DNA from: Microcaldota archaeon
GTDB lineage: Archaea > B1Sed10-29 > B47-G15
Assembly: GCA_003660975.1 (NCBI GenBank)
Contig: QMVG01000001.1
Coordinates: 1 to 64,000, forward strand
DNA: 64,000 bases
Reading direction: 5' to 3'
This document shows positions 7,950-27,600 of the stretch, in pieces (within the stretch, counting starts at the first letter, position 1; each line of letters opens with the position of its first letter). The notes beneath the pieces are model-generated. The model was not told where the DNA came from. It was given only the letters and a program-made list of their open reading frames with translations, and made no database searches. Position numbers and translations under genes: made by a program.

Positions 7950-8627
7950 TTACTTTCCAAAATTGCGCTGCGTGCTCCTGTAAAAATCAATAGCCTTGTT
8001 GAACTCCCTCCTGTCAAATTCTGGCCACAGCCTTTTGCTAAAGTATAACTCAGAATACACCGCCTGCCAGGGAAGGAAATTACTCAGGCGTTGGTATGAC
8101 CCTGTTCTCACTATGAGGTCAACATCATGCGGCATATAAAGGTGCTTTTTTATGTTTTCTTCTGTCACTTTCTCACCATTGAGCTTCAGAGCCTTTATCG
8201 CATTTATCAATTCGTCCCTCCCGCCATAGCCAAGGGCTATGTTAAGCTCATATTTTTTGTAGTCCTGCGTTTTTTCTTCAAGGTATCGTATATCCTCTCT
8301 TAAGTCTGGAAGAGCGTCTCTTTTGCCTATAATCTTTACCTTTACCTCGTTGTCATGCAGCTTCTTGTGAAGTGCAAACTCTCTCAGATATTTCCTAAAC
8401 AATTTCTTCAGTATGCTTAATTCCACTGACTTTCTTCTCAGGTTTTCAGTAGAAAGAGCATACATCGTCACAACCTTTAGATATGGCAGTTTGAGGCACC
8501 AGTTTAGAACCTTCTCAGCTGTCTTGAAACCCAATTCATAGGCCCTTAAAAGGTCTATGCTGTGCTTTCTAGCAAATCTCCTGTTGCCATCAGGTATGAA
8601 TGCAATGGACTGCAACATTAAAATCAT
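7950..8627 (-). CDS. uppS: Cis-prenyltransferase (UppS-family polyprenyl diphosphate synthase)
   Basis: SIAFIPDGNRRFARKH, TMYALSTENLRR, DLIVRTGSYQRLSNFLPWQAVYSELYFSKRLWPEF family motifs. Confidence 0.93.
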   Translation of the reverse strand: MILMLQSIAFIPDGNRRFARKHSIDLLRAYELGFKTAEKVLNWCLKLPYLKVVTMYALSTENLRRKSVELSILKKLFRKYLREFALHKKLHDNEVKVKIIGKRDALPDLREDIRYLEEKTQDYKKYELNIALGYGGRDELINAIKALKLNGEKVTEENIKKHLYMPHDVDLIVRTGSYQRLSNFLPWQAVYSELYFSKRLWPEFDRREFNKAIDFYRSTQRNFGK

Positions 8628-8691: not shown

Positions 8692-9279
8692 ATGGAAAGA
8701 GGTATTTCACCAACAGTTTCATTTGTGCTGGTTGTCACAATCATACTTCTAGCAACTGCTGTGACATATCTGTGGGCAGCTCCAATAATCTCTGGCATAA
8801 ACGAACCTGGGAGGGTGAGAAACCTAAAAAACCAAATGGTAAACCTGGATTATATGATAAGAGCAACTGCTCATGGAGACATAAATTTTACCAACAGCTA
8901 TGAGTTATACGCACCTGGAGCATTTCTTGAACTCAGGCCAAGCAACGATTCTATTGTTATGACCTTCGTTCAAAAAGCATTGGTAATAGGAGTGGTCCAA
9001 AAAAACAAAAACACGAAATGCAGCTATGACGCTGAATACCTGAATGACACCATAACAGGAATATATCTTGGCAGAGAAATGAACATGTCAAGAGTATACT
9101 GGGGAGCAAAAGGTGTTGGAGATGCTGAGATAATGATATGCTATGATGATATTGACCTAAAATTTAACGGAGTATGCTCAAAAGGAAAAACAGGAGCACC
9201 GAGAATCTTGGTTTATATGAAAAAGATTGGGGTAAATGCGACAGATAACAGGCCAATTGTAAGCATAGATGTTTGTTAG
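8692..9279 (+). CDS. Archaeal type IV pilin-like protein
   Basis: MERGISPTVSFVLVVTIILLATAVTYLWA: short basic leader plus hydrophobic helix, as in archaeal pilins/flagellins. Confidence 0.75.
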   Translation: MERGISPTVSFVLVVTIILLATAVTYLWAAPIISGINEPGRVRNLKNQMVNLDYMIRATAHGDINFTNSYELYAPGAFLELRPSNDSIVMTFVQKALVIGVVQKNKNTKCSYDAEYLNDTITGIYLGREMNMSRVYWGAKGVGDAEIMICYDDIDLKFNGVCSKGKTGAPRILVYMKKIGVNATDNRPIVSIDVC

Positions 9280-9287
9280 GGATGTAA

Positions 9288-9737
9288 ATGGCCACATTTA
9301 GCATAAACTTTGTTCTGAGGATAAGCGTATTGGCTACAATGATGGTCGCTATTATGCTTGCCATGATTGTTCAGTCAAACGAGATCAAAGCATACCAGCA
9401 GAGCATAAAGATGCAGGAGGTGGCGAAATATATTGACTCAGAGATAACGAACGTGTATCTTAGCCTACAGAAAGTAAACGAAACGCTCAACAAAAGCATA
9501 TATCTGCCATATGACCCGTCCTTTTATTATCTTGTAAACCTGTCGTGCGTTGGAGGGAATATACAAATAAGCGCAGAAACACCTTCTCTGGGCAAAATCT
9601 TTATTATAAAAAAGCGCGTTAAATGCAATGCGAACTCTGTCTCTGGGCTCGCATTTCCTGGGGAGAATTGCATAATGGGAAAGAGAATAGATGCGACTCA
9701 TGTTAATATAACTCTTGTGAGGGATTGCATTGTCTGA
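9288..9737 (+). CDS. Minor pilin-like single-TM protein
   Basis: N-terminal TM helix, Cys-containing ectodomain, 8-nt overlap with the ATPase gene. Confidence 0.6.
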   Translation: MATFSINFVLRISVLATMMVAIMLAMIVQSNEIKAYQQSIKMQEVAKYIDSEITNVYLSLQKVNETLNKSIYLPYDPSFYYLVNLSCVGGNIQISAETPSLGKIFIIKKRVKCNANSVSGLAFPGENCIMGKRIDATHVNITLVRDCIV

Positions 9738-11667
9738 AAATATCGACAAGAAAAAACTGGCCAAGATACTGAAAAGAGCAGTGAATGAGATAAAACCAGA
9801 GGACATACCTCTATTCGCTGATAGAAGAGATATATTCATACAGCCTGCTCCAAAGATTCACGTTATTGAAGAGGTAAAAGCACCTGAAGAAATTAAGATA
9901 AAGGCTGGAAAGGACATCTTCAAAGAACTTGAAAAAGAGGTAAAGGAAGGCAAAGGCGCTAGCATAATAAAACCAAAGGGCCCTATAGTGCTTGAATTCC
10001 CAAAAATAACAGAGGAATTGAAAACATTTAACGTGATAAACATAAACGAGCTGGGAAAAGGAGAGGTTCTAGGCTTACCTTTCAGCAGCCACACGCTACC
10101 AGAGGTTGAAAAAAGCAAGAAGATAAACAGCGAGTGGGAACCTCCAGAAATGGAAAAAATAGACATGAGATATGCTTTGATAGAACCGTATGCTTATGCT
10201 AGCATTCATTGGGATGGAAAAAATAACGAATTGGTGTACAGTGTAATAGAGCCACCGCTGACTGATAGGGAGAAGAAGATATTGGAACAGCTTAAGGAAA
10301 TGATTTCTGACCTTCTGGACATAAATCTTATGGAAGCTACGAACACCAAGGAACTACAGCAATATCTGAAAAAGAAGATAGACCAATTGATAAGGGACTA
10401 CGAGATAAAGGTTTCTGAGGTTGAATATTGGAAGATATTGTATTACATTTACAGAAACTTCTTGGGTCTTGGGAAGATAGAACCTTTGATGCATGACCCG
10501 AACATTGAGGATATCTCATGCGATGGTGTAAACATACCTATTTTTGTATTCCACAGAAAATTTGGCAGTCTAAAAACTAATATCAAGTTTGAAAGCGATG
10601 ACGAGTTAAATACATTTGTAACAAAGTTGGCGCAACGTTGCGGCAAGCACATAAGTGTTGCTGAACCCCTTTTAGACGCAGCCCTGCCTGACGGGTCGAG
10701 ATTAAGTGCCACATACAGTGCAGGTGGAGACATAGCAACAAAGGGAAGCACGTTCACCATCAGAAAATTTACGAAAGACCCGCTTACCATAATAGACCTA
10801 ATGAATTACGGAACCATACCTGCTACAATGGCTGCTTATCTGTGGTTGGCAATAGAATTTAGGAACTCCACTCTTGTGGCTGGTGGGACAGCAACAGGAA
10901 AAACGAGCACTCTCAACACGCTTTGCTTGTTCATACACCCTGAGGCCAAAATAGTAAGCATTGAAGACACAAGTGAATTGAGGCTACCCCACGAGCATTG
11001 GATAGCGAAAATTGCAAGACCTGGCTATGGGCAGGCAGGAGCCTCTGGAGAAAAGAGAGGAGAGATAAGCATGTTTGACTTGTTAAAGACAGCGCTGAGG
11101 GAGAGACCTGAAGTTATAGTGGTGGGCGAAGTAAGAGGAAAAGAAGCATATGTACTATTCCAAGGTATGGCTACAGGACATATGGGCTTATCAACGATTC
11201 ATGCTGAAAGCATGAACGCAGTTGTCAGCAGGTTGACAACACCTCCTATTAACTTATCACCAGGCCTGCTCCAGCACTTAAAGCTGGTGATAGTCCTGCA
11301 ACATGCACATATAAAGGGGATAGATGTAAGAAGGGTGAAGGAAGTTGTTGAGATAGTAGGCATAGATGCAAGAACTCAGAGACCTATAACAAACCAGATA
11401 TTTAGGTGGGTGCCTTCAGGGGATTATTATGAATTTGCTTCTGACAGGAGTTATATACTAAATAGAATCATAGACGAGAAAGGAGTAAGTGAGCGCAGTG
11501 TCTGGGCAGAGCTGAAAAGAAGGAGAGACATCCTAAATTGGATGAAAAAGAAAAACATAAGATATTATGAGGATGTGGGCAACATAGTTGCCACATATTA
11601 CAAAAATCCAGAGCTTATCTTGGAGAAGGTTTATGGGGAGGAAAATGAAAGCGCCAATATTCAGTAA
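9730..11667 (+). CDS. Type II/IV secretion system (TadA/FlaI/PilT-like) ATPase, system A
   Basis: Walker A GGTATGKTSTLN, IEDTSELRLPHEHW, RERPEVIVVGEVRGKEA (Walker B), GHMGLSTIHAES. TTG start. Confidence 0.93.
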   Translation: MSENIDKKKLAKILKRAVNEIKPEDIPLFADRRDIFIQPAPKIHVIEEVKAPEEIKIKAGKDIFKELEKEVKEGKGASIIKPKGPIVLEFPKITEELKTFNVININELGKGEVLGLPFSSHTLPEVEKSKKINSEWEPPEMEKIDMRYALIEPYAYASIHWDGKNNELVYSVIEPPLTDREKKILEQLKEMISDLLDINLMEATNTKELQQYLKKKIDQLIRDYEIKVSEVEYWKILYYIYRNFLGLGKIEPLMHDPNIEDISCDGVNIPIFVFHRKFGSLKTNIKFESDDELNTFVTKLAQRCGKHISVAEPLLDAALPDGSRLSATYSAGGDIATKGSTFTIRKFTKDPLTIIDLMNYGTIPATMAAYLWLAIEFRNSTLVAGGTATGKTSTLNTLCLFIHPEAKIVSIEDTSELRLPHEHWIAKIARPGYGQAGASGEKRGEISMFDLLKTALRERPEVIVVGEVRGKEAYVLFQGMATGHMGLSTIHAESMNAVVSRLTTPPINLSPGLLQHLKLVIVLQHAHIKGIDVRRVKEVVEIVGIDARTQRPITNQIFRWVPSGDYYEFASDRSYILNRIIDEKGVSERSVWAELKRRRDILNWMKKKNIRYYEDVGNIVATYYKNPELILEKVYGEENESANIQ

Positions 11668-12550
11668 GCCATATAGGATACTAGCATACAAGATATGCAA
11701 GAAATTGGGTATCTTTTCAATTCCCTTCCTCTCGAGGCAGATGAAAAAAATAAAACCGCTGCTTCTATCAGCAAAGTTGAGAATGACTGAGGAAGAATAT
11801 TTTGGGACTATAATATTTACGACTATGCTGCTATTCCCGTTTGAATCAATTATTTTTTATTTACTGTTGATAACTGTGCCTGCCTTCTCTTTTCTGTCTG
11901 CCTTATTTTTATCCCTGATATTTGCAAGCTTTATGTCGGTTGTCATCTTCGCAGTCTTTCTCATCTATCCAACATATAGAGTTGAACAAATAAAAAGGGA
12001 TATAGAAGCCAATGTTCCGTATGCAGCCATGCATATGGCAACCATTGCTGGCACAGGTGTTCCTACGTATAAAATATTTGAAATGATGGGAAAGTTCAAA
12101 GAATATGGTGAAGTAAGTGATGAATGCAAGAGGATAAGCAGAGACATAAACTTTTTTGGCTATGACATGTTAACAACAATGTCAAAAACAGCCACCAATA
12201 CACCTAGCCCGAGCTTTAAGGACCTGCTCTGGGGTCTGGTTGCAGTGATACGCTCAGGGGGAGATACTAGGCATTTCCTAATGGAAAAGGCCAGGCAGTA
12301 TTTGGAAAGGCAAAAGAACATTGAGAAAGAGTATTTAGATAGCTTAAGCGTGATGGCAGAGTTGTATATAACGCTTTTTGTGGCTGGCCCCATACTCTTC
12401 GTGATCATGGTGACAATTATGGGCAGTATGACAAATCTCGGTCTACCTGTTACTGTTATCCTTTCTGTGCTGATATATTTCATACTTCCGATAGCCTCAA
12501 TAGCATATATTATAATGTTGGAGGGCAGTAAGCCTGTTGGCTTTGAATGA
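11645..12550 (+). CDS. TadC/FlaJ-like (T2SF family) membrane platform protein, system A copy 1
   Basis: Multi-TM, helical cytosolic domain with ANVPYAAMHMATIAGTGVPTYKIFEMM; start refined to MKAPIFSK. Confidence 0.82.
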   Translation: MKAPIFSKPYRILAYKICKKLGIFSIPFLSRQMKKIKPLLLSAKLRMTEEEYFGTIIFTTMLLFPFESIIFYLLLITVPAFSFLSALFLSLIFASFMSVVIFAVFLIYPTYRVEQIKRDIEANVPYAAMHMATIAGTGVPTYKIFEMMGKFKEYGEVSDECKRISRDINFFGYDMLTTMSKTATNTPSPSFKDLLWGLVAVIRSGGDTRHFLMEKARQYLERQKNIEKEYLDSLSVMAELYITLFVAGPILFVIMVTIMGSMTNLGLPVTVILSVLIYFILPIASIAYIIMLEGSKPVGFE

Positions 12551-12559
12551 GGTGCGTGC

Positions 12560-13714
12560 ATGAAGATAAACATAGACAGAAAAAGCCTGCTGATAATGGT
12601 ATCAGGCTTGATACTGCTGTTAATTGATATTCTGTTCCTGTTGGAAAGCCCCTATTTCCAAAATCTTGTGATTATCTCCATTATGGTTATAAGCGCTCCG
12701 CTTTTGATAAGGCAGTATCTGGAATATAGGCGGATAAAACTTATAGAGAGATACCTCCCAGATTTCCTTAGGGATGTTGCAGAAGCCAGAAAATCAGGCA
12801 TGCCTCTTATAAGGGCAATACAAAACGCAAGTAAGGGAAATTATGGGCCATTGACTGAGGAAATGAAGAAAGTCAGCAACCAATTGTCATGGGGTGTCTC
12901 TCTTGAAGAGGCTCTGAGGAAGTTCATGGAAAGGGTAAACAGCAAATTTGTAAAACAGGCAGTGCTCATAATAATAGAAGCATATAAATCAGGGGGAGAA
13001 ATATCAAACATATTAGAAACAGTAAGCACGGACATAGAAACATTAAAGGAAATGGAAAGTGAGAGGAAGAGCAAACTTAAGATATACACCTATTCAATGT
13101 ATATGATATTCTTGCTTTTTCTAATGATAATAATAGTGCTTGCTGTTACATTTATTCCTGCCACGCCTGAGCTTGCAAGCGTTGCTAAGATAATGGGAGG
13201 ACAGACTCAGGAGGTTGCTGAAGCCGACTTCTTGACACTATTCTTCCATCTGGCCTTAATAGAGGCAGTGTTTGCTGGTTTGATAAGCGGGCAGATGGGT
13301 GAAGGCAGCATAATAGCAGGTATAAAACACAGCGTGATTCTTGTTGTAATTACTATGCTGGTTTTCTCCTTTTTCATTTCACAGGCGCCTTTTTCATCCA
13401 AAATTGCGGAAGAGATAATAAAGTCTCCTCCAGGGGTGGAAAGCACGCTTTCCATACAAAAGATATATGTTCTGGATAAGGATGTTAGCAGCATGGAGAT
13501 TATAGAGGAGTTAAGAAAAAAGGCGCCTAATCCAGAGGTATTCAGTGATATAACTCCCAATGATGTGTTCTTTAGGGCTGAAAACTGCAAACCATGCAGT
13601 AGGGGAGATATAGAAGTCAGAGCACATTCTATAAAAGTGAACAAAGCAAGTAGGATACATTACATAGTTAAGCAACGCAACAAAAAATATTATGTGAGTA
13701 TTGGGGGAGAGTAA
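12560..13714 (+). CDS. TadC/FlaJ-like (T2SF family) membrane platform protein, system A copy 2
   Basis: YLPDFLRDVAEARKSGMPLIRAIQNASKGNYGPLTEEMKKVSNQLSWGVSLEEAL is typical of T2SF/GspF domains. Confidence 0.87.
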   Translation: MKINIDRKSLLIMVSGLILLLIDILFLLESPYFQNLVIISIMVISAPLLIRQYLEYRRIKLIERYLPDFLRDVAEARKSGMPLIRAIQNASKGNYGPLTEEMKKVSNQLSWGVSLEEALRKFMERVNSKFVKQAVLIIIEAYKSGGEISNILETVSTDIETLKEMESERKSKLKIYTYSMYMIFLLFLMIIIVLAVTFIPATPELASVAKIMGGQTQEVAEADFLTLFFHLALIEAVFAGLISGQMGEGSIIAGIKHSVILVVITMLVFSFFISQAPFSSKIAEEIIKSPPGVESTLSIQKIYVLDKDVSSMEIIEELRKKAPNPEVFSDITPNDVFFRAENCKPCSRGDIEVRAHSIKVNKASRIHYIVKQRNKKYYVSIGGE

Positions 13715-14232
13715 TGAGAGCGAACCTTAACTTTGACTTTATAGTTGCCCTGGCTCTCTTTGTAACTGCATATGCTACCTTAACCACCAGTATGCCTTCA
13801 TTTGCTATTGGGTACAGGGCTTTGGAAGACCCTCTCCTCGTCGACTCAGAATATTTGCTTCATACACTTATTGCAAACGCAGGCGAACCTGGAAACTGGA
13901 GCTCCACGACACAAGTGAATAGGATAGGATTAGCATACTTTAACAGGACAAGCTATCCCTATGTGCTTTCACTGGAAAAAATAAAAGCAGTAAATGGTAA
14001 AGACTGCGCATCCTTTCTAGATAAGACAGACACAAATATAAACTTCAAGTTCAGGGTGGATGTTAAGAAAGGAACAAAAAGCTCAAGTTATGAATGCAAT
14101 GCAGAGCTTCCGCTTGGAGCCAGGCTCATCCAGAGGCCTGTTAAGGTTGCTTACATTGAGGGGGTAGGCAAAGATGCAAAGGTAATATATAATGTGTCAA
14201 GATTTTATCTTTGGACCTGGCTGGCCAAATAG
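13714..14232 (+). CDS. Pilin-like/secreted single-TM protein
   Basis: N-terminal hydrophobic segment NFDFIVALALFVTAYATL; operonic overlap. Confidence 0.55.
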   Translation: MRANLNFDFIVALALFVTAYATLTTSMPSFAIGYRALEDPLLVDSEYLLHTLIANAGEPGNWSSTTQVNRIGLAYFNRTSYPYVLSLEKIKAVNGKDCASFLDKTDTNINFKFRVDVKKGTKSSSYECNAELPLGARLIQRPVKVAYIEGVGKDAKVIYNVSRFYLWTWLAK

Positions 14233-14240
14233 GTGTTAGT

Positions 14241-14672
14241 ATGAAAGGATTTATGCATCTCACTGAGGCAATCATTGCAATCATGCTGTTGATGGTAGTA
14301 TTGAATGCTGTTCAGAGCAATATTGGGGAAAGATATGAGGACTTTAGCGGCACGTATAGGTTGAAATCCCTAGCAGATAGCCTTGTCTTTTCTGTCTGCA
14401 ATGACCAAAATGTAAGGCAGCACTTGGTGAACAATGACTTAACGTATATTTCAAGTTCAGAGCTTGATTGGGCACTGCCTAAAGATGTTTCTTACAAAAT
14501 AGTACTTTACTCGCAAGGAGGCAATGTAATTGGCTCTATAGGCTATCAGCCATCCGAGAAGGATGTGGTTGTCACGAGCAGCTGTTTGATATCAGGGTAT
14601 ATGGAGATAAACAATATGTCCAACTACTCATACGCTCCGCGAAAACTAGTGGCTATGTTGTGGAATAGGTGA
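14241..14672 (+). CDS. Pilin-like single-TM protein
   Basis: MKGFMHLTEAIIAIMLLMVVLNAVQS; start refined from ORF start 14211. Confidence 0.55.
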   Translation: MKGFMHLTEAIIAIMLLMVVLNAVQSNIGERYEDFSGTYRLKSLADSLVFSVCNDQNVRQHLVNNDLTYISSSELDWALPKDVSYKIVLYSQGGNVIGSIGYQPSEKDVVVTSSCLISGYMEINNMSNYSYAPRKLVAMLWNR

Positions 14673-14676
14673 TTTC

Positions 14677-14955
14677 ATGAATAGGGGACAGTTTTTCATA
14701 TTGACTGTGGTGCTTGTCTCTGTGCTGATTGCTGCTGTCGCAGAAAATTACTTTTTTGAATTGGAAGCAAAAAGGAGCTTTAACAGGATAGAAAGCAATT
14801 ATGCCCTTATGGAAAATATCAAGACAGAGCTGGCAATCGTCACTATGATGGATCCTATGAATAGCACAAGAATAAAGAACTTCACATTATACATAGCAAA
14901 CGAAAGTAAAAAGGCAAATATTAAAGCAAATATAACAACGAGGTTATTGCCGTGA
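14677..14955 (+). CDS. Small pilin-like protein
   Basis: MNRGQFFILTVVLVSVLIAAVAENYFFELE; operon position. Confidence 0.55.
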   Translation: MNRGQFFILTVVLVSVLIAAVAENYFFELEAKRSFNRIESNYALMENIKTELAIVTMMDPMNSTRIKNFTLYIANESKKANIKANITTRLLP

Positions 14956-17264
14956 AAAAATTGTTATTAATCATTATGTTTGCATTGCTCATTAATCTTG
15001 CTTACTCAGCAGAGGCCAGATGGTCTGACACTATGAGGATAACAAATAACGCTGTGAGAGATAGCTTTACAGATATCTCATGCACAAGCCCATACTTCTG
15101 CATGGCTGTTTGGCAATGGGAGATATCAAGTAACAGATATGAAATAAATGCTTCATTTTGGGATGGCAATTCCTGGAGCACAGCAATGAATTTGACTTTA
15201 ATGAACTCACTTGAGAGGAATACGCGCCCAACTGTGTCATGTATTTCTCCTTCATTCTGCATGGCGGCTTGGGAGTACAATGACCTAGTAAATCCCACGC
15301 AGATAGCATATTCTACATGGAACGGATTGTCATGGTCAAGGGCCTCTGTGCTGACCTCTGCAAGCAGGGCGCAGAGTTGGCCTACATTAAAGTGCCTTGA
15401 CATTAGCGGAAACACGTGGTGCATGCTCGTCTGGGTAAATGATACGGGCATAGGCCTGAAACTCTCGTATTGGGACTATGACCAAAATGCTTACAATGGC
15501 TGGGACCCTGCAAAGGCACCCCAGGGTCTCCAGATAAATACTGGCTCTGCTGATGTAACAAGGCCTGATGTTGACTGCAATAGCAATAATTTCTGCGTGG
15601 CGTCGTACACTGAATTAACACTGCCAAGCACCATAAAAGCTGTGAAATGGGCTGGCTCATCTTGGGGGACTATTTCAGGCACTGTGTCTGGGTCTCTCTC
15701 AAATGACAATGACTTTTCATCAGTTGCTTGCGGAAATGAAATTGCTCCTGTTTTAACAGATTACTGTGAATTTGCGTGGGAAAATCTGGGCAGTCCGAAT
15801 TCAGTTTACCACAACAATTACAATGATTTCACGCCTTCTTTGGGAAGCCCAACAAGTATTACATCAAACAACAAAGGGGGAAAGCCAGATTTGAGCTGCA
15901 CCAAAAATGCAAATCACATGAACTGCACTTTTGTATGGAATAATTATACTGGCTCCCAATGGGAAATAGTTGGAACTGCGTATGAGGGGGGGTGGGTCTA
16001 TGACCCTGCAGTGAATATAAGTAATTCATCGTCCAGCAATGCCAATGCAAGTATATCTCAACCTGTTGATTGGTTTTCAATGACTGTCTTTCAAGAAAAT
16101 GACGGAGACGAGGAGATATACGCGGTCTACTCACAGAAAAATATACCTCCATACAATTTTCAAGCTAACGACAACGGAGCAGGGAATATTGACAATTACA
16201 CAGATGTTAAGATATCTGCTACATGGACTGACCCAAATCTTAATGAAATTGTAAACCTCTTTGTTGCCAATAACAGTAAGTTTATAGGCTGCAATAAAAG
16301 CAGCAGCAGCTGGTGCTTGTGTACAGATATGGGGCAAACAGATGGAGATGGAGAGTGCATTATAGACACTGCCAAGCAAAAGAACAAAGTGTGGTGGTAT
16401 GCAAGAGCCTGTGATGATGAGTGGAACTGCTCTGCTTATGACAATGACTCATACTATGTAACGCAAAAGAACAAGCCATATCTAACATACGTGGACGTGA
16501 AACCAGATAACCCGAACACCACAGTCAGTTTATCGTGTAATTTCAGGGCAAGCGACGCAGATAGCACTGATAAACTGCATGCTAACATAACGTGGTTTGT
16601 GAATGTGACTCCAGACAGTTTTATGCATGTGGATGACTATGATGTTATAAACACCCCGCTTCCAAATGGCGATCCTGGAAATGTGAGCCCCCTGAAGATT
16701 CCATATGACCATGTAAACCATACGAAGCATAGAGTATGGAAATGCCAAGTAACTGTAAGGGATGGCACCGGAACGCCTTATGACGCTAAAAACGGATCAG
16801 AGGAGATAGTAAACAGCTTGGCTGAGATATCCTCAATAAGCCTTAATCCAAAACCAGCGTATCCCTTTGATGATTTGGTCTGCAACACGACTGTGAGTGA
16901 TGCTGATGGGGACAACCTAAACGTACAGTACAGGTTTGACAAGGATGGGCTGTTGTTTAGGACTGGCACTGCCACTTGTTGGGGAAGCCCGCCGTACAAG
17001 TGCAATGCAACTGTTGGCAGTCCTGCTACATCTGCTGGGGAAACATGGAAGTGTACAATGAATGTCACTGATGATGAAACCAATCCTTCGCTGGCAGATG
17101 TAGATTATGACACCCTTCAAATAAATTATCCTCAAGGCAATTGCGATGTTTATATAAATTGCAGTGCTGATACCTGTAAGTTCGCAAGAGAGTTTAATAT
17201 TAGTTTAAGTCCTTTTGAAGGATATGCAAGAATCAAAAGCAAATATAAGGTGTGCTGGTCATGA
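14952..17264 (+). CDS. Secreted protein with N-terminal propeller-like repeats and C-terminal Ig-like repeats
   Basis: Signal peptide MKKLLLIIMFALLINLAYSAEA; repeated SCxSPxFCMAxW...WDGxxWS motif; later extracellular beta-domain-like repeats. GTG start overlapping the upstream gene. Confidence 0.7.
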   Translation: MKKLLLIIMFALLINLAYSAEARWSDTMRITNNAVRDSFTDISCTSPYFCMAVWQWEISSNRYEINASFWDGNSWSTAMNLTLMNSLERNTRPTVSCISPSFCMAAWEYNDLVNPTQIAYSTWNGLSWSRASVLTSASRAQSWPTLKCLDISGNTWCMLVWVNDTGIGLKLSYWDYDQNAYNGWDPAKAPQGLQINTGSADVTRPDVDCNSNNFCVASYTELTLPSTIKAVKWAGSSWGTISGTVSGSLSNDNDFSSVACGNEIAPVLTDYCEFAWENLGSPNSVYHNNYNDFTPSLGSPTSITSNNKGGKPDLSCTKNANHMNCTFVWNNYTGSQWEIVGTAYEGGWVYDPAVNISNSSSSNANASISQPVDWFSMTVFQENDGDEEIYAVYSQKNIPPYNFQANDNGAGNIDNYTDVKISATWTDPNLNEIVNLFVANNSKFIGCNKSSSSWCLCTDMGQTDGDGECIIDTAKQKNKVWWYARACDDEWNCSAYDNDSYYVTQKNKPYLTYVDVKPDNPNTTVSLSCNFRASDADSTDKLHANITWFVNVTPDSFMHVDDYDVINTPLPNGDPGNVSPLKIPYDHVNHTKHRVWKCQVTVRDGTGTPYDAKNGSEEIVNSLAEISSISLNPKPAYPFDDLVCNTTVSDADGDNLNVQYRFDKDGLLFRTGTATCWGSPPYKCNATVGSPATSAGETWKCTMNVTDDETNPSLADVDYDTLQINYPQGNCDVYINCSADTCKFAREFNISLSPFEGYARIKSKYKVCWS

Positions 17265-17800
17265 TACGCTTTAAAAAAGAAGAGTTCAAAGTAGAGGTTG
17301 CGGATAAATTTTGGAAAAAGGTCATAGGCCTTATGTTCAGAAAAAAGCTGGACCACGCCCTGCTAATTCCATTAAATAAAGAGACAAGAAAAGGAGCTAG
17401 CATACACTCTATGTTTATGAGGTTCACATTTGATGCTATTTTTTTAAATAAGGACTTGGAAGTCGTTGATATGGCCACCATAAAACCGTGGACGCTAAAC
17501 TTCACCCCAAAGGCCGCGGCAAAGTACATAGTAGAGGTGCCTGAATACACCATAGTAAAGAACCTAATAAACCTCGGGGATGTCATAGAAATAGATGAAA
17601 TAGAAAAGGAGCCGGAGCCTGAACGCATTGAACACTACGAAAAAACATTTGCTCCAATAAAGAGAGACATAAAGGCGTTCAAGCAGAGTCCATCTATTCC
17701 TTACTTCCTGAAAAACTATTTTATCAAGAAAAAATTAACTGCAAGTAATAAAGAAAGGTTAGAAAAACCTAATAATAAGAAGCAGAAGCAAAAGAGATAA
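17261..17800 (+). CDS. DUF192 family protein with basic C-terminal tail
   Basis: GLMFRKKLDHALLIPL...SIHSMFMRFTFDAIFLNKDLEVVDM...AKYIVEVPEYTI is the DUF192 signature; ATGA overlap with the upstream stop. Confidence 0.85.
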   Translation: MIRFKKEEFKVEVADKFWKKVIGLMFRKKLDHALLIPLNKETRKGASIHSMFMRFTFDAIFLNKDLEVVDMATIKPWTLNFTPKAAAKYIVEVPEYTIVKNLINLGDVIEIDEIEKEPEPERIEHYEKTFAPIKRDIKAFKQSPSIPYFLKNYFIKKKLTASNKERLEKPNNKKQKQKR

Positions 17801-19422
17801 TGCGCTTAAGCTTGGACAGGGAAAAGTGTACTGATTGCGGAGCATGTTTGGAAAGCTGTCCCATGCAACCAAGAGACGTAAGCATATCCCAGTTTCTAAA
17901 CTGCCCTTGTGAAGCAAAACCTTGCCTGTCTGTTTGTCCTGAAAAAGCAATTGAAGAGAGAAATGGCGCTGTTGTAATAAACAGAAAGAAATGCAATGAC
18001 TGTGGCAAGTGTATAGAGGTATGTCCGAATCATGCAATAGGCAGGGATAAGGATGGGCATGTAGTCAAATGTGATATGGGCTTTTCATTTGGTTATCCAA
18101 AATGCGTGCAGACCTGCCCGTATAATGCTATAAAATACGAACTCACGGAGGAAGAAAAGGAGAAGATAAGTGAATGGATAGGTTGGGAAAAGAGTGATGA
18201 GGCAGAATATAAGGCAGACGTGAGGCGCATAGGTTTTGAGGAAGCAAGAATCATACACAACACAATAAAGATATTCAGAAGGGAGTTCAACGATTACGAC
18301 GAAAATATCATAAGGAAAATAATCAATGCCTACTGCGACAAGAAAAACATAGAAATTGAGAAAAAACTTTTTGAGAAGATTGTAAAGCAGGTTGAATCCG
18401 AAATCAGGGGTTATGGAGTGCTTGACCTATTTTTGAATGACGATGACTTAGAGGAAATTGCTGTTATTGGGAGCAACAAACCAATATATGTTTACCATAA
18501 GGACAAAGGCTGGCTTAAAAGCAATGTGACGGTAACTAATGAACAGAAGATAATAGACCTAGCCAATAAAATGAGCAGAGACCTGGGAAGAAGAATCACT
18601 ATGCAAAAACCAAGAATAAATGCCAACATAAAACTTGGCAGAATCCATGCAGGCATGAGGCCTGTTGCCTTCTCAGGCGCTTGCCTGACAATAAGGAAAT
18701 TTAGGAGGAAGTTATTCAGCCCCGAGGAATTGGTGCAAAACCAAAGCATAAGCAAGGAAGCATTGCACTTTTTAGCAATGGCTATGAAATCAGATGTAAG
18801 CATAATGGTCGTTGGGAACACAGGCAGCGGAAAAACAACGCTAATGAACGCACTTTTTGATTTTATTCCGTTAAATGAACGCATTATCATTGTTGAGGAG
18901 ACGCCTGAAATAAATGTGAAGCACCCGCACCAGATTAGATTAACAGTTTCAGAGGATTTGGACATAAGCATGCATGAGCTAATTGAGGACACATTGAGGA
19001 TGAGGCCTGATAGGGTCATAGTTGGAGAAATAAGAAGCCCTGAAGAGGTAAAGGCATTCATAAACACGATGTTGGCAGGCCAGGGCAAGGCCTCTTATGC
19101 CACATTTCACGCCCAAAACGCAGAGGAGGCACTGATCAGAATGCAGAGCATGGGGATAAACCCAATGGACCTCAATGCTCTGGACCTGATAGTAAGCCAA
19201 AGAAGATGGTCTGAAATAGGAAGAACAGGAGAGGTTAGAAGGGTTGTTGAGATCGCCTCTGTAGAGAAAAATTACAGGGGAAGTCCAAGGATAAAACATT
19301 TGTTCAAATATGATATGAGAAAGAAAAAGCTGGAAATGAAAACGCTTGAGGGGCCTGCTGTTGAAAAGATATGTTTGAGCTATGGGATTAAGGCAAAAGA
19401 TTTAATGAGGACCAAAGTATGA
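17800..19422 (+). CDS. Polyferredoxin (multi 4Fe-4S)-TadA/FlaI-like ATPase fusion, system B
   Basis: N-term CTDCGACLESCP, CPCEAKPCLSVCP, CNDCGKCIEVCP, CDMGFSFGYPKCVQTCP; C-term Walker A GNTGSGKTTLMNAL, VEETPEINVKHPHQIRL, MRPDRVIVGEIRSPEEV, ATFHAQNAEEAL, all in one uninterrupted frame. Confidence 0.92.
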   Translation: MRLSLDREKCTDCGACLESCPMQPRDVSISQFLNCPCEAKPCLSVCPEKAIEERNGAVVINRKKCNDCGKCIEVCPNHAIGRDKDGHVVKCDMGFSFGYPKCVQTCPYNAIKYELTEEEKEKISEWIGWEKSDEAEYKADVRRIGFEEARIIHNTIKIFRREFNDYDENIIRKIINAYCDKKNIEIEKKLFEKIVKQVESEIRGYGVLDLFLNDDDLEEIAVIGSNKPIYVYHKDKGWLKSNVTVTNEQKIIDLANKMSRDLGRRITMQKPRINANIKLGRIHAGMRPVAFSGACLTIRKFRRKLFSPEELVQNQSISKEALHFLAMAMKSDVSIMVVGNTGSGKTTLMNALFDFIPLNERIIIVEETPEINVKHPHQIRLTVSEDLDISMHELIEDTLRMRPDRVIVGEIRSPEEVKAFINTMLAGQGKASYATFHAQNAEEALIRMQSMGINPMDLNALDLIVSQRRWSEIGRTGEVRRVVEIASVEKNYRGSPRIKHLFKYDMRKKKLEMKTLEGPAVEKICLSYGIKAKDLMRTKV

Positions 19423-20240
19423 GGGACATTATGGACGAAGCAGTGGAATCTGCTTATGCTAACTTATCAGTTATTGCCAAGTATTTTTATGACAAAAAAT
19501 TTGAAAAAGCGCTAAAAGAGGCCCAAATGCCTTACAGCGCTTTGGAATATACCTCATTTGCGATTGCCTTAGGCATTGTCTCTGCAATTTTCTCAACACT
19601 CCTAATTGCAGTCACTGAGCTGTGGTTTGCTTTTCTTCCGCTTGCTTTCGCGTTTGCCTATACATTGGCAATGCTTTATCCAAAGCAAAAAGCAGTGCAT
19701 ATAAGAAAAGCAGTTGAAAAGGAAATTCCTGATTTTCTCAGAGATGTGGCCCTTGAGCTAAACGCAGGCAGCTCATTTGAAAAAGCTCTGCTGACTTATT
19801 CCAAGAAAGGAACAGTGTTCTCACAATTAGTCAGAAAAGCTGTGCTCTCAATAAAGCACGGTGGGAGCGTCCAGGAGGCACTGGGCTCTCTGGCATTGAT
19901 GACTTCATCAAAGAGGTTGATGAGAACAGTTAATGCCTTAATATCTGTATACGAAAAAACATCCAAGAAACAGGGAGACATACTGCAAAAGCTAGCGAGA
20001 GATTTTTCCAGAGAGGATTATGCTAGACTGAAAGAATATCACTCAAAGGTAGCTGTCTATTCCTTGATTTTCATAACTTTCTCATCTGTGCTTCCTGCCA
20101 TGTACCAAGGCTTTGTGGCAATTGCTTCAAGGTTCTTGAGCATTGGCATAAGCCCTGAGCAAGCCCTATTAATACCTGCTCTTTTATTCCCGCTCTTAAA
20201 CATCCTCATAATAGCCATAGTGAGGGAGAAAGCCCCATGA
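19419..20240 (+). CDS. TadB/FlaJ-like membrane platform protein, system B copy 1
   Basis: EIPDFLRDVALELNAGSSFEKALLTYSKKG...SIKHGGSVQEALGSLA; TM segments; ATGA overlap. Confidence 0.82.
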   Translation: MRDIMDEAVESAYANLSVIAKYFYDKKFEKALKEAQMPYSALEYTSFAIALGIVSAIFSTLLIAVTELWFAFLPLAFAFAYTLAMLYPKQKAVHIRKAVEKEIPDFLRDVALELNAGSSFEKALLTYSKKGTVFSQLVRKAVLSIKHGGSVQEALGSLALMTSSKRLMRTVNALISVYEKTSKKQGDILQKLARDFSREDYARLKEYHSKVAVYSLIFITFSSVLPAMYQGFVAIASRFLSIGISPEQALLIPALLFPLLNILIIAIVREKAP

Positions 20241-20935
20241 GAATATTAAAAACGTACTTTGAAAAGAAAAAAGAAAGAGAAATGGAAGAAGAGATACCAG
20301 AAATCCTCTACCACGTTGCCAACATGCTATCATACACTAGTATTGAGGAGGTAATTAACTGGATTGCTTCAAGAGAAGGAGAGATAGGAAGGCGCTTTTT
20401 GCTTGTCAACAGAAAAATAAAGAATGGTGAAAGTGCTGAAAGGGCATTGCTTGAACTAAGAGAGAGTGTCAGAAGTGATTTCATAAAAAGAGCAGTGGAT
20501 ATGCTAATCTCTGAGTGCAGGACAGGAGCTAAGAACAGTAATATGCTAAGAGAAGTTGCGGAAGACATGCAAGACATGTTGCAGGCCAGAAGGGAAAAGA
20601 CAGCATCAGCAACTGTTGAGAAATACACTTTGTTAATTGCTGGAACTGTAATAGTGCCTCTTCTCTTGGGTCTCATGATAAGCATAAGCCACAACCTTAG
20701 CTCTGCTGAGCTGGGCGACTTTGCACTTTCCTCTGTAGACAGTGCCATAATAGAAAACAGCATACTTGGAAGTCAGATATATATCGTTGAGTATGCTTTC
20801 ATAGCAGCCCTGTTCATAGCTATTCAAGAGGGTAAAAGTGAGAACATGTTGAGATACTTAATTATAATACTTCCCAGCTCTGTTTTGATATTCAACCTGG
20901 CCCAACGCTTCAATGTCTTGCAGGTCCTATCGTAA
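20237..20935 (+). CDS. TadC/FlaJ-like membrane platform protein, system B copy 2
   Basis: EEIPEILYHVANMLSYTSIEEVINW...NRKIKNGESAERALLEL...MLISECRTGAKNSNMLREVAEDMQD. Confidence 0.8.
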   Translation: MRILKTYFEKKKEREMEEEIPEILYHVANMLSYTSIEEVINWIASREGEIGRRFLLVNRKIKNGESAERALLELRESVRSDFIKRAVDMLISECRTGAKNSNMLREVAEDMQDMLQARREKTASATVEKYTLLIAGTVIVPLLLGLMISISHNLSSAELGDFALSSVDSAIIENSILGSQIYIVEYAFIAALFIAIQEGKSENMLRYLIIILPSSVLIFNLAQRFNVLQVLS

Positions 20936-20975
20936 CACCAGAACTGTTTTAAAGATTACGTGCTTTTTATAGTGT

Positions 20976-21851
20976 ATGGGGAGAAAAATTGAGGCCTACA
21001 AGCTGGAGCCAAAGCTGTTCTTTACGATGCTTCTTTGCATTCTAATCATATTCTTCACGTTTATCGTGCTGACATATAAAGAAGAGGCAGTGAGCAGGAA
21101 GGTCAGCAAAAACGAGAGTTTCAGCATAAATGTATCACTAAACAAAACAGAGGAAAACATAAGCACAGCTGAAATACCAAGTGAAAACAAAAGTGAGGAA
21201 AAAACATTATACGTGAAAGCAGAATTTTTGGAAAGTAGAACAGGCAGGGAAAACTTTTCTGTGGCATATGATGGTAGTGTACTTGAGGTAAGAAGCAACC
21301 CTCTTGGCATGGGAGACTGGGCTGTTGTTTTCACAGTAAATGATGAGATAAAAAACTTCTCATTTGAGTACTTAGAGAATGCAAGCATACAGCTCTTTGA
21401 CCCTTTTATTAGGATACATTTTTACAGCTATAACCCCGAGCTGAGTGCTAATGACCTGTCATCTTTACCTTCCCCTGATTATTTCTACCTGGCAGAGGCG
21501 AGGGTTGACCCGAGCGCTTCATACCCTGTTGGCCAAAGAGAGATGTGGGGACCTGAAATCTGCTACAGTAAATACAAATACTGTGACAGCGAACAAAAAG
21601 GTAGGAAGGGGCAGATAGTGCTAAGCTCTGAGTATTTGAAAAGCCTGGCCAAAGAGTTTAAGAAGAAAGATATAGAGCCAAAGATGAAGGCTCCTGTAAC
21701 AGTTGTCATACACGGGAATAACCTTGTGAGAAAAAGCAGCCATGTCTGGCGAATAAGAGAGATAAAGGTCAATGGCATAAAGCTTAAATTCTCTTTGCTA
21801 GTTGATAAGTACAGAAACAGGACAGTATATATGAAAAACGTGGAGGGATAG
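20976..21851 (+). CDS. Single-pass membrane-anchored extracytoplasmic protein of unknown function
   Basis: One N-terminal TM (LFFTMLLCILIIFFTFIVLTY) and N-glycosylation-rich ectodomain. Confidence 0.55.
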   Translation: MGRKIEAYKLEPKLFFTMLLCILIIFFTFIVLTYKEEAVSRKVSKNESFSINVSLNKTEENISTAEIPSENKSEEKTLYVKAEFLESRTGRENFSVAYDGSVLEVRSNPLGMGDWAVVFTVNDEIKNFSFEYLENASIQLFDPFIRIHFYSYNPELSANDLSSLPSPDYFYLAEARVDPSASYPVGQREMWGPEICYSKYKYCDSEQKGRKGQIVLSSEYLKSLAKEFKKKDIEPKMKAPVTVVIHGNNLVRKSSHVWRIREIKVNGIKLKFSLLVDKYRNRTVYMKNVEG

Positions 21852-21852
21852 A

Positions 21853-22590
21853 ATGAAGCATGTTGAGGTCGTGCTAACACGAGATGTTGACCTAAAAAAT
21901 AGTGTGCTTATAGAGGGCTTTCCTGGTGTTGGCTTAGTAGGAACCATTGCGGTTAGCTACATAGTGGAAAAAACAGGAATGAAAGCAATAGGTTATATAG
22001 ATTCGGAGAGTTTTCCCCCCATAATAACAATACATAAGGGCAGGCCTTACTTTCCTATGCGAATCTATAAGCACCCAAGCAAGGACTTCTGTGTGCTTCT
22101 GGCAGAGTTTGTTACACCCTCTGATGTGATTCATGAACTGGCTAAGAAGATATTGAGCTTTGCAAAGGAAAAAGGAATAAGGCAGATAATATCCCTTGCT
22201 GGCATGAGCATGCCTGAAAACGAGAGGGAATCAGAGATATTTGGCATAGCTTCAAATGAAGAGATGCAGCTTTTCTTAGCTTCAAAAAATGTAAAAGCAA
22301 TTGAAGAGGGCGTAACAACAGGTGTTAGTGGCATGCTCATCGCAGAGTGTGCTAGGGAAAATTTTCCTGCTATTACTCTGCTCGCACAGTCAGAGTACAA
22401 GGTGCCGAACCCAAGGGCTTCGGCGGAATTGATAAAGAAACTGGATGAACTCATAGGCCTTGAGGTTGACACAAGTGAATTGCTCAGAGAGGCCAAAGAG
22501 ATAGAGAAAAAGATGAAAGGGCTGATGAGCAAGAGCGTGAAAGAAAAGAAGATGTACAAGGAGGTTGAGGATTCCCTCATGTATGAGTAA
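21853..22590 (+). CDS. Proteasome assembly chaperone family (PAC2) protein
   Basis: LIEGFPGVGLVGTIAVSYIVEKTGMKAIGYIDSESFPPIITIHKGRPYFPMRIY and VTTGVSGMLIAEC motifs. Confidence 0.88.
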   Translation: MKHVEVVLTRDVDLKNSVLIEGFPGVGLVGTIAVSYIVEKTGMKAIGYIDSESFPPIITIHKGRPYFPMRIYKHPSKDFCVLLAEFVTPSDVIHELAKKILSFAKEKGIRQIISLAGMSMPENERESEIFGIASNEEMQLFLASKNVKAIEEGVTTGVSGMLIAECARENFPAITLLAQSEYKVPNPRASAELIKKLDELIGLEVDTSELLREAKEIEKKMKGLMSKSVKEKKMYKEVEDSLMYE

Positions 22591-22599
22591 GGTGGTGCG

Positions 22600-23151
22600 A
22601 TGAAGGAGCTTGAAGACATAAGGGAATTTTACAAGATTATGAGCCCAAGGCTCACTGTCTTGGTAACTACGATGGACGCGAGAGGCGTGGCAGATGTGGC
22701 TGCTTTCTCGTTTGTAACTCCTATCTCTTTTGACCCACCAATGCTGCTGTTGGCAGTTGGACCAAACAAGCACTCATATTGGAGCATAACTACGAAAAAA
22801 GAGTTTGTTGTAAACGTGCCTAGCGAGGAATTGGCTGAGAAAATCATGATAGCAGGAGAGCCGTTCGACCCAAAGGCAAGCAAGATAGAAAGAGCAGGTT
22901 TTGAGACGATTCCAAGCAAGGTGGTTGGGCCTCCCAGCATAAAAGACTGCGTGGCAAACATAGAGTGCTACGTTGAAGACGCCAGAAAATATGGGGACCA
23001 TGTTATAATAGTCGGCAAGGTAGTTGCTGTGAGGGTCAGGGATGACGCTGTTGACGAGGAATATAGGTTAAGGACAGATAAAATAAGACCACCGCTCCAC
23101 ATAAGTGATAATGTATTTGCTTTCCCGTACGTTGAAAAGAAAATAGAGTAA
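22600..23151 (+). CDS. Flavin reductase-like / FMN-binding split-barrel protein (flavoredoxin-like)
   Basis: PRLTVLVTTMDARGVADVAAFSFVTPISFDPPMLLLAVGPNKHSYWSITTKKEFVVNVPS. Confidence 0.87.
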   Translation: MKELEDIREFYKIMSPRLTVLVTTMDARGVADVAAFSFVTPISFDPPMLLLAVGPNKHSYWSITTKKEFVVNVPSEELAEKIMIAGEPFDPKASKIERAGFETIPSKVVGPPSIKDCVANIECYVEDARKYGDHVIIVGKVVAVRVRDDAVDEEYRLRTDKIRPPLHISDNVFAFPYVEKKIE

Positions 23152-24664: not shown

Positions 24665-24688
24665 TGAGTAATTAAAAAGGGTGTTTTG

Positions 24689-27600
24689 GTGGAAAGAGCA
24701 TATGCCTTTTTGATGGCTTTGGTACTGATCTCCTCAGTTTTCACTCCTTATGCATATGCCATTAGGGAGAGAAATAACAACGATTATGTGGTGCATGACA
24801 TAAGCGTTAAAGAAAAAAGCTTAAGCCACTTTATCGGAAGTTCAGATGACAACTGCTGGTTGAAGGTCAGGACATCTGCAATTGACCATGACGAGTTCTC
24901 AAAGCTGATGGAGGCCGTTGATGAGGACATAGACAGCTTCGGAAACATTGTCTTGGGAAGGATACAGAGAGAAAGGGAGAGAGCAGGCATAGCAGACGAC
25001 CCAGAGGTGGAAAAAGCCAGAAACCAGATATTTATGATAAACGGCGTGCCTGTGAGGCTTTACGACATAGCTTCAAGGAGCGCTAAGAATCCAGACGATG
25101 TCTGCCACTTAAGCTCTGTGCTGGTTGACGGTGCCATATCTCTTGGCATGGGAATAAACCAGAACCTGAGGTTTTGCGCTGACAACCCCTCTCCTGCCTG
25201 TGAGGAGGGCTATGCTTCTTCTGTGAGCAGGAAAGACCTGGTCGCAGTTGAGAGAATAATAAGCGAACTGAAAAAAGCAGAGGATGACAAGGAAGTCAAT
25301 TGGGACGCTGTTTCATCTGAATTTGAGAAATTGCACATTGATTTTGAGACAGATGGAAAAAGCGACGGGGAGCTTCTTGATGAAGCTACTGCCAACCTCG
25401 CGAGCATCATAAAAGAAAAAAAGGTAAAGTACAGCCCTGCCAACATAATTGAAAGCAACAGGACCTTCATAACGCTGGCTCCTTCAGACATCATTTACCT
25501 CTTTCCCAAGGAAATAATGAACATGGCCAATGTAATAAGCGGCTTGAGAAAGGACCTCAACAAGTGGAACCTGATGGGCCTCGGGGTTGGGCTGAGCAGC
25601 ATAGGCATTGGTTGGATGAACTCCATAGCAACCAGGTCAGTCACCAGGCTTGGCAGGGGCATAGCAGAGGACAGCGACGAGTTTGCCAGCTTGACCAGGC
25701 AGGGAGGGAGAGTAAGAGGCTTGTTTACCCGAGGAAGCCCGAGTCAAAGGATGATAAGAAGATGGAGCCGCGGTGGAGGCACTATTACAGAAGAGCTAGT
25801 CCCTTCTGCAGGACAGGGAATTAGAGACAGACTTGGAGGCTGGTGGTGGAAAAAGGTTAGAGCGAAAAACCTGAGAAATGTGGGCATAGCTGAGGATGAA
25901 ATTAATGGCATAGCAGATGCGTTGAGAAAGGGAAATATAGATGAGGCTGTGAAAAAGCTGGATGATATTACACGGGATTTGGATAATATTCCCACAAAAG
26001 AAAAAGTAGATGACATTGCAGATGGGCTGAGAAGGATATCAAAGCAAAAGCAAATAACTGGGGAAGCACTCAACGATCAGGTGAGTAAACTGGATGAGCT
26101 TGCTGAAAAGTTTCCTGATGAGGTTCCCGATGAAGCAGAAGTGAAAAAAACTTTAGGAGACGTAAAGAAGATGCTGGAAGGCGGGAGCGTAGATAAAGAA
26201 GTGATAGAAAAGGCTGTGAAAAAGTTGGATGACCTTGCTGAGAATCTTCCCAGCAATACCAAGCTGAAAGCTTTCAAGGAAGAATTAGAAAAGATTAACT
26301 ATTACAGGGACATAAACAGGAGAAGAGCCATAGCTGATGCTCTGGAGAGAAAGCTGACCGAAATCACGCCAAAGGACCCATCCAATACAAAGGAATGGTC
26401 CAAGGCATTTCAGAGCCATTATAAAGACAAAATTTACATAGGGCAGCAAAAGATAGAAGATGTTTTAAATGGATGGAAAAGAGAGGGGAGAATAATGGAC
26501 AGTGACATTAGTGAATTTCTGGAGACCATTGAGAGTGGAAAGTATGACGAGGCCATAAAGGCATTACCGTCTGACATACAAAGTGAGGACATAATAGCAG
26601 ATATAAGAAATGTAGCGGCAAAAGCAAAGAAGACAACTGGAGGGAAGATTGATGATATGGATAAATTTTTAAAGGCGAAGGTCGGCGGTGAATATGTTGG
26701 AGAGCTTGGAGATGTGATGACAGACATCGTGAAGGCAAATGCAGGTGGCTTTGGGGCGCTTATTGACCTGGCCAGGGCTGCAGGCAAATCTAAGGCCCTA
26801 TATTACCTCGCAAGTGCTGCAATCAGAGTAGGGCAGAGGGCGAGATATGTTTTGGACATTGGAAGGACTGCTATGTTTGCTGGCTTTATAGCAAGCACTG
26901 CCTTCAAGGGGGACGTGCAGGGCTTTTTCTCAATGCACACCTTCAATCTTGAGCTGAGCCCGAAGGAAGTGCTCAAGCAAAGCGGAAAGGACGGCTATGT
27001 TGACGTGCTTGCTGTAAGCAGAAAGGCAAGCATTGACATGGTGGAGCCAGACATGGTGACAGCCGTGCTGGCCTACTTTGGCATTGATGTGGGCAAGATG
27101 CTTAACGCTCCGCCGAGCGAGGAGAAAATAATAGCGGAAAAGCTGAAGAGCATAAGCAAGATGCTCTTCTTCATGGACCAGGAGGGAAGCGTGGTTGAGG
27201 GAAGGATCAACAGCATAGGGAGGATTGACGAGCTGGGGTCAAGGAGGTTCATGCTCCTGGCGAGAAACCCGGCGCAAAGCCACTTCCTGCTGGCAGAGCA
27301 CCCTCACTCGTATAAGGTCTCGTCATCTGGAAAGTACAGCTCGCTTCTGCTGAACATAAACAATGTTGACTTAAGCGTCATAGGTCCTGACGTGGTGGAC
27401 TACGCGCAGCCAGACAGGATCACCACCTTCCTCGCAAATTGGATGCCATCTCCTTGGAAGCTGGTGCTGATGGGGGCGGCATGGGGCATCTTTGATGTGG
27501 CAGCAGTTGCCACAAGCAAGTTGGGCATACTCGGCGTTTCAATTCCCGTGATGTACTATGCAACCAGGCTCTTCGGAGAAAGAGGCACCTCACTCGTCTC

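What the first reader, a model, noticed from the sequence alone, without database searches (positions are those of the whole stretch)
17800..19422. Polyferredoxin fused to a TadA/FlaI-like secretion ATPase
Seen directly: one uninterrupted 540-aa frame carries about four Cys clusters (CTDCGACLESCP, CPCEAKPCLSVCP, CNDCGKCIEVCP, CDMGFSFGYPKCVQTCP) followed by a complete T2/T4 secretion ATPase with Walker A GNTGSGKTT and Walker B VIVGEIR. Known: ferredoxin folds of this HycB/NrfC-like type carry electrons, and FlaI/TadA ATPases power pilus assembly. The combination is not one I associate with a characterised machine. Inference: a redox- or oxygen-gated pilus/secretion motor, or a redox-delivery machine. 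The two T2SF-like platform genes follow at once with 4-nt overlaps, but no obvious pilin does, so its substrate is unknown.
Basis: partly seen in the sequence, partly recalled or inferred. Interest (0 to 1): 0.88.

Follow-up and report, generated by a model that had tools for sequence, protein, structure and literature searches.

The report
Iron-sulfur ferredoxin fused to archaeal pilus motor
A pilus-motor ATPase of small uncultured archaea carries an iron-sulfur ferredoxin at its front end; the fusion is real and widely kept in two or more archaeal phyla, some lineages have lost its iron-sulfur clusters one whole cluster at a time, and we found no earlier description of it, which suggests a pilus motor that senses redox state.

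Summary
ORF 17800-19422 (540 aa) joins a four-motif polyferredoxin of HycB/NrfC/DmsB fold (residues 1-114) to a complete FlaI/TadA/GspE-type motor ATPase. One correction: the fourth Cys motif has three, not four, cysteines (15 in all). It is no artefact: 15 of 19 genomes of the window's class (Diapherotrites) carry the fusion, one carries it as two overlapping genes, 22 of 93 genomes of a second phylum (probably Micrarchaeota) carry it, and a third archaeal lineage has two copies. In three retained variants the missing cysteines are exactly the four ligands of one [4Fe-4S] cluster, or of two, in the interlaced ferredoxin arrangement: strong indirect evidence that real clusters are bound. Fd-less orthologs arose repeatedly, so the clusters are accessory, not part of the motor's core. 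Best reading: the second motor of a type IV pilus-like machine, with a redox-responsive Fe-S domain. Gating and retraction are inferred, not shown. A new variant of a known kind.

The parts
17800..18141 (+). Polyferredoxin domain, residues 1-114, four Cys motifs (A: C10 C13 C16 C20; B: CPCEAKPCLSVC ending at C46-P; C: C65 C68 C71 C75; D: C91 C102 C106, the usual second Cys missing), HycB/NrfC/DmsB-like fold
   Evidence: Pfam Fer4 families; PDB sequence matches to MvhB, FwdF, NrfC; AF2 model pLDDT 83.6 matched to HycB3/NrfC/FdnH/WOR5 Fe-S subunits; conserved ligand columns
18142..18603 (+). Linker and N-terminal domain of the motor ATPase, residues about 115-268 (family signature RRIT.Q.PR.NA)
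   Evidence: alignment of 14 fused orthologs; AF2 model
18604..19224 (+). T2SSE motor ATPase core, residues 269-475: Walker A, Asp box, Walker B, His box intact
   Evidence: Pfam PF00437 138 bits; Foldseek to archaeal GspE 2OAP 2e-31, FlaI 4IHQ 8e-30, CpaF/TadA 1e-29
19419..20240 (+). T2SSF-like platform protein 1
   Evidence: Pfam PF00482, conserved directly downstream
20237..20935 (+). T2SSF-like platform protein 2
   Evidence: Pfam PF00482, conserved
17252..17800 (+). DUF192 (COG1430) protein, overlaps the start of the fusion by 1 nt; conserved upstream neighbour
   Evidence: PF02643
21853..22590 (+). PAC2-family protein, conserved downstream neighbour in fused and unfused loci
   Evidence: PF09754
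22600..23151 (+). Flavin-reductase-like (FMN) protein; neighbour in the window's class only
   Evidence: PF01613
20976..21851 (+). Membrane-anchored protein of unknown family between T2SSF and PAC2
   Evidence: no Pfam match; no homolog among the relatives' loci
9730..11667 (+). Upstream FlaI-like motor ATPase of the neighbouring pilus module
   Evidence: PF00437; NF058587 416 bits, under its cut-off of 550
11588..12550 (+). T2SSF platform protein of the upstream module
12560..13714 (+). T2SSF platform protein of the upstream module
8692..9279 (+). Pilin-like protein, class III-type N-terminus MERG|ISPTVSFVLVV
9288..9737 (+). Pilin-like small membrane protein
13714..14232 (+). Pilin-like protein (relatives: KKG|SLNIEF..., Glu at +5)
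14211..14672 (+). Pilin-like protein (relatives: K/R-G-F...EA...)
14677..14955 (+). Pilin-like protein MNRGQFF...
14952..17264 (+). Large secreted protein with signal peptide (770 aa); a large secreted protein sits here in relatives

Best explanation
The protein is a type IV filament motor ATPase (FlaI/TadA/CpaF/archaeal GspE type, presumably a hexamer) whose N-terminus is a four-cluster polyferredoxin. It works with the two T2SSF-like platform proteins encoded right after it, in a two-motor type IV pilus-like machine whose pilins and first motor are encoded just upstream in the same gene run. SHOWN by sequence and model: the fusion, intact ATPase motifs, a HycB/NrfC-like fold, conserved gene order, cluster-by-cluster loss of ligands, and repeated presence/absence of the domain. 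INFERRED: clusters are bound in vivo (strong inference); they work as an accessory redox, oxygen or iron sensor that changes motor activity or its docking (moderate); the machine extends, retracts or switches the upstream pilus rather than building a separate one (weak).
For: Fusion in 15 of 19 genomes of the class, split into two adjacent genes in one (L054:3343-3720 and 2078-3361); 22 of 93 genomes of a second phylum; two paralogs in a third lineage. 22 of 38 Fd domains keep all 16 ligand positions. 7 genomes in two families miss exactly A1-A3+D4, 3 miss exactly B1-B3+C4, 4 miss A1-A3+D4 and C1-C3+B4: whole clusters in the interlaced ferredoxin pairing, the best of 24 pairings. Fold matches: ATPase to 2OAP, FlaI, CpaF; Fd to HycB3, WOR5, FHL HycB, NrfC. 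Fd-less orthologs are not one clade (p-AU 2e-7; at least 11 changes) and keep T2SSF/PAC2 neighbours, so the domain is accessory. 16 co-directional genes, gaps -80 to +40 nt; the same order in G015 and G017, and upstream T4P-type modules in several more. Prepilin peptidases are in the genome.
Against: No biochemistry. HycB-type domains normally carry electrons; none is proven here to be a sensor. No electron donor or acceptor was identified, and the flavin-reductase-like neighbour does not follow the Fd domain. The window's own copy lacks one ligand of the fourth cluster. In the second phylum the upstream pilin module is mostly not beside the fusion (G097 is an exception), so sharing of pilins is unproven there. 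Each motor has its own platform pair, which could mean two separate machines.
Confidence: 0.5

Rival explanations
1. The Fe-S domain is a structural or docking module: it takes the place of the N-terminal partner-binding domain of PilB/GspE-type motors and attaches the hexamer to platform or DUF192/PAC2 partners, with clusters that only hold the fold together.
For: It sits where other motors carry partner-binding N-domains (general knowledge of the family); metal domains exist in the family (zinc domain of EpsE, PMC5061722). Fd-less orthologs keep the same neighbours.
Against: If partner binding were the job, repeated complete loss needs a substitute, and none was seen; stepwise loss of single clusters leaves the other clusters exact, which fits redox function at least as well as structure.
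Confidence: 0.28
2. The domain is an electron relay: electrons pass through the polyferredoxin at the membrane to a redox partner, possibly the adjacent flavin-reductase-like protein, or outward.
For: The nearest folds are electron-transfer subunits of HDCR, FHL, polysulfide reductase and W-enzymes; a flavin-reductase-like gene lies downstream of PAC2 in most of the class.
Against: That gene is retained, away from the locus, in Fd-less genomes G001 and G005 and is not next to the fusion in the second phylum; Fd-less motors persist; no membrane redox subunit was seen nearby.
Confidence: 0.12
3. It is an ordinary motor of a second, separate pilus or secretion machine; the Fe-S domain is a lineage quirk with only a minor effect.
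For: Own T2SSF pair; unfused orthologs are the majority over all (52 of 90 scored).
Against: Conservation of all 16 ligands in 22 divergent sequences argues against a neutral passenger.
Confidence: 0.09
4. Assembly or frameshift artefact that joined two genes.
For: None; the genome is a fragmented MAG.
Against: The same fusion in 36 other genomes; no strong compositional jump.
Confidence: 0.01

Closest known systems
Archaeal secretion ATPase GspE (2OAP) and archaellum motor FlaI (4IHQ)
   Same: ATPase fold, all catalytic motifs, T2SSF partner genes
   Different: No Fe-S domain; the FlaI equivalog model gives 174 bits against a cut-off of 550
CpaF/TadA motor of Tad pili (8RJF, 9E24)
   Same: Fold, and one ATPase with two T2SSF-like proteins; best NCBIfam match is TadA-type TIGR03819 at 180 bits
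   Different: Below the cut-off of 373; CpaF is a single bidirectional motor (PMC11300603, PMC12019362), whereas here two motor modules lie in tandem and one bears Fe-S motifs
HycB/NrfC/DmsB four-cluster Fe-S subunits and methanogen polyferredoxins (MvhB, VhuB, FwdF)
   Same: Four interlaced cluster motifs, fold match with TM (query) 0.60-0.70
   Different: Those are subunits of redox enzymes; here the domain is fused to a mechanical motor
EpsE zinc domain (T2SS ATPase)
   Same: A metal-binding Cys domain in a secretion ATPase (PMC5061722)
   Different: Zinc, four Cys, within the ATPase's C-terminal part; not a ferredoxin

Membership tests
T2SSE / type IV filament motor ATPases | T2SSE profile above the curated cut-off | tested here: met
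   138.4 bits against 24.9
T2SSE / type IV filament motor ATPases | Walker A, Asp box, Walker B, His box | tested here: met
   read in sequence; key residues invariant or nearly so in 13 aligned relatives
T2SSE / type IV filament motor ATPases | ATP hydrolysis as a hexamer | not testable with these tools
   needs protein
FlaI archaellum motor (NF058587) | equivalog score over cut-off | tested here: not met
   173.7 against 550
PilT/PilU retraction ATPases (TIGR01420) | subfamily score over cut-off | tested here: not met
   48.5 against 319
TadA/CpaF (TIGR03819) | score over cut-off | tested here: not met
   180 against 373, though the best-ranked model
HycB/NrfC/DmsB-like four-cluster ferredoxins | 16 Cys in four motifs with interlaced ligation | tested here: met
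   family: 22 of 38 have all 16, and loss patterns fit the interlaced pairing; the window copy has 15 of 16
HycB/NrfC/DmsB-like four-cluster ferredoxins | fold | tested here: met
   Foldseek E 1e-6 to HycB3, probability 1.00
HycB/NrfC/DmsB-like four-cluster ferredoxins | part of a redox enzyme complex | tested here: not met
   no molybdo/hydrogenase subunit recognised among the neighbours seen
HycB/NrfC/DmsB-like four-cluster ferredoxins | clusters bound | not testable with these tools
   needs UV-vis/EPR
Type IV pilus-like system | motor, platform, pilins with class III N-termini, prepilin peptidase | tested here: met
   (pilins by N-terminus and synteny only, no Pfam pilin match)

The most novel reading that the evidence does not exclude
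A two-motor archaeal type IV pilus in which the second motor, a candidate retraction or switching ATPase, is turned on or off by a built-in multi-cluster iron-sulfur sensor, coupling pilus dynamics of DPANN archaea to redox state or oxygen. Archaeal T4P gene clusters are reported to lack a dedicated retraction ATPase (PMC11178815).
Probability: 0.17. Interest if true: 0.87.

Novelty: new variant of a known kind. Interest (0 to 1): 0.64.

Why it matters
No redox-active cofactor is known to us on a type IV filament motor. If the clusters gate the motor, this is a direct physical link between redox state and surface filaments, in archaea many of which depend on cell-cell contact with a host. The tandem of two complete motor/platform modules with pilins also offers a concrete candidate for the open question of how archaeal pili retract. 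The recurrent cluster-by-cluster loss gives ready-made natural variants (four, three, two and no clusters) for testing what each cluster does.

Tried and rejected
Artefact: rejected by homologs. Ferredoxin-flavin reductase partnership: the gene neighbours the fusion in most of the class, but it is kept away from the locus in Fd-less G001 and G005 and was not seen within about 5 kb downstream in the second phylum, so no covariation. Separate ferredoxin gene next to unfused orthologs: none found except G010. Literature: the main text of the Makarova 2016 census holds no ferredoxin, DUF192 or PAC2 (supplements not readable); other searches found nothing. First alignment A1 was too diverse for the collection scan; A2 worked. 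Promoter and terminator scans gave no more than chance. In one search the wrong window ORF entered one alignment; redone. G016's short Fd (8 Cys) looks like an internal deletion or an error and was left out of one pairing test. Four orthologs cut off at a contig end were not scored for Fd state.

Full report
WHAT IS THERE. The frame at 17800-19422 is open and 540 aa long. Pfam sees ferredoxin domains over residues 5-112 and T2SSE over 269-475, far above cut-off. The four motor motifs are intact. AlphaFold2 with 13 sequences gives a good model (pLDDT 87.4, pTM 0.64) whose best PDB matches are archaeal GspE (2OAP), FlaI and CpaF/TadA. The N-terminal 131 residues modelled alone (pLDDT 83.6) match the four-cluster Fe-S subunits of the hydrogen-dependent CO2 reductase, tungsten oxidoreductases, formate hydrogenlyase and polysulfide reductase. 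Sequence matches in the PDB say the same: MvhB, FwdF, NrfC.

CORRECTION. The window's fourth motif has only three Cys: relatives read KCDLC...C...C, the window KCDMG...C...C. The second motif is one residue short (CxC). The fourth site may hold a [3Fe-4S] cluster or use another ligand; this is inference.

IT IS CONSERVED. In the window's class 15 of 19 genomes, the window's own included, have the fusion, one (G010) has ferredoxin and ATPase as two adjacent overlapping genes, two (G001, G005) lack the ferredoxin, and one 61%-complete genome gave no ortholog. A scan of 397 archaeal genomes found the fusion elsewhere only in G274, a 3.8-Mb genome with two paralogs, each with a polyferredoxin.

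THE CLUSTERS ARE PROBABLY REAL. In ferredoxins the fourth Cys of one motif binds the cluster of its partner motif (established knowledge). Call the motifs A-D. Of 38 ferredoxin domains, 22 keep all 16 ligand positions. Seven (two families) lack exactly A1, A2, A3 and D4 while keeping A4 and D1-D3. Three lack exactly B1-B3 and C4 while keeping B4 and C1-C3. Four lack A1-A3+D4 and C1-C3+B4. So ligands vanish by whole cluster in the interlaced arrangement and not by motif; without the deletion case G016 this pairing is the best of 24 by a clear margin (1 partial cluster against 3 or more). This is what one expects if each cluster is really assembled and if half-sites are selected against. It is indirect evidence; relatedness within families means that there are about four independent events, not fourteen.

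THE DOMAIN IS ACCESSORY. On a tree of the ATPase part, Fd-bearing and Fd-less forms need at least 11 changes, and the Fd-less forms are rejected as one clade (p-AU 2e-7; quick tree, deep branches weak). With paralogs as outgroup the lowest branches are mostly Fd-bearing, which fits an ancestral fusion with repeated loss, but direction is not proven. Fd-less orthologs keep T2SSF and PAC2 neighbours about as often as Fd-bearing ones. So the motor works without the clusters, which favours a regulatory or docking role over an essential electron-transfer role.

THE SURROUNDINGS. Sixteen genes from 8692 to 23151 run in one direction with gaps of -80 to +40 nt. In order: two pilin-like proteins, a FlaI-like ATPase, two T2SSF, three pilin-like proteins, a 770-aa secreted protein, DUF192, the fusion, two T2SSF, an unknown membrane protein, PAC2, a flavin-reductase-like protein. 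The same order, flanked by an undecaprenyl-diphosphate-synthase gene, is found in G015 and G017, and an upstream pilus-type module (ATPase and/or T2SSF and/or pilin-like genes) in G004, G008, G010, G011, G014 and G097. The pilin-like proteins have class III-type N-termini, for example MERG|ISPTVSFVLVV and, in a relative, KKG|SLNIEF; they have no Pfam pilin match, so this rests on N-terminus and synteny. Two prepilin peptidases are in the genome. The fusion is therefore the second motor of a two-module locus; whether both serve one filament is open.

MECHANISM. Most likely the polyferredoxin senses redox, oxygen or iron state and changes the ATPase hexamer's activity or its docking to the platform. 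Shown: architecture, conservation, whole-cluster loss, dispensability. Inferred: cluster binding, sensing, the target. A retraction role is attractive because archaeal T4P clusters are reported to lack PilT-like ATPases and Aap pili have a single ATPase type (PMC11178815), but the protein is not a PilT by score and CpaF shows that one motor can do both (PMC11300603, PMC12019362).

NOVELTY. No paper found in the held library links a ferredoxin to a secretion or pilus ATPase, and the main text of the archaeal T4P census has no mention of ferredoxin, DUF192 or PAC2. Absence from this library is not proof; automatic annotation probably lists such proteins. The parts are known kinds; the combination and its evolution appear undescribed.

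Noticed in passing
window 24686-29650: 1654-aa secreted protein with a TM segment near each end and no Pfam family over cut-off; large proteins of similar size and position recur downstream of the locus in most relatives in both phyla.
   Followed up: partly
window 17252-17800: DUF192 (COG1430) protein is a frequent upstream neighbour of this motor with and without the ferredoxin; in the window it has a long Lys-rich tail. Its role in pilus loci seems undescribed.
   Followed up: partly
window 21853-22590: PAC2-family (proteasome assembly chaperone-like) gene is tightly linked to the motor in both phyla (48 of 60 loci with enough sequence).
   Followed up: partly
window 8001-8627 (-): Undecaprenyl diphosphate synthase gene flanks the pilus locus here and flanks the unfused motor in Micrarchaeota-named records, often with a geranylgeranyl-reductase-like gene.
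   Followed up: partly
window 35871-36425 (-): A third T2SSE ATPase in the window (761-aa frame); the genome has eight T2SSE matches over cut-off.
   Followed up: no
L173:6524-8938 and L174:6864-8831: Two paralogous polyferredoxin-ATPase fusions in a 3.8-Mb archaeal genome of another phylum, one with a long Pro/Lys-rich N-terminal tail.
   Followed up: partly
L054:2078-3720 (-): Natural split of the fusion into a 125-aa four-cluster ferredoxin gene and an overlapping ATPase gene.
   Followed up: yes
L055:9470-10792 (-): Ferredoxin part reduced to 8 Cys (two motifs) by a clean internal deletion, or an assembly error.
   Followed up: no
window 20976-21851: Membrane-anchored 291-aa protein without known family, inside the locus, not conserved in relatives.
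   Followed up: no
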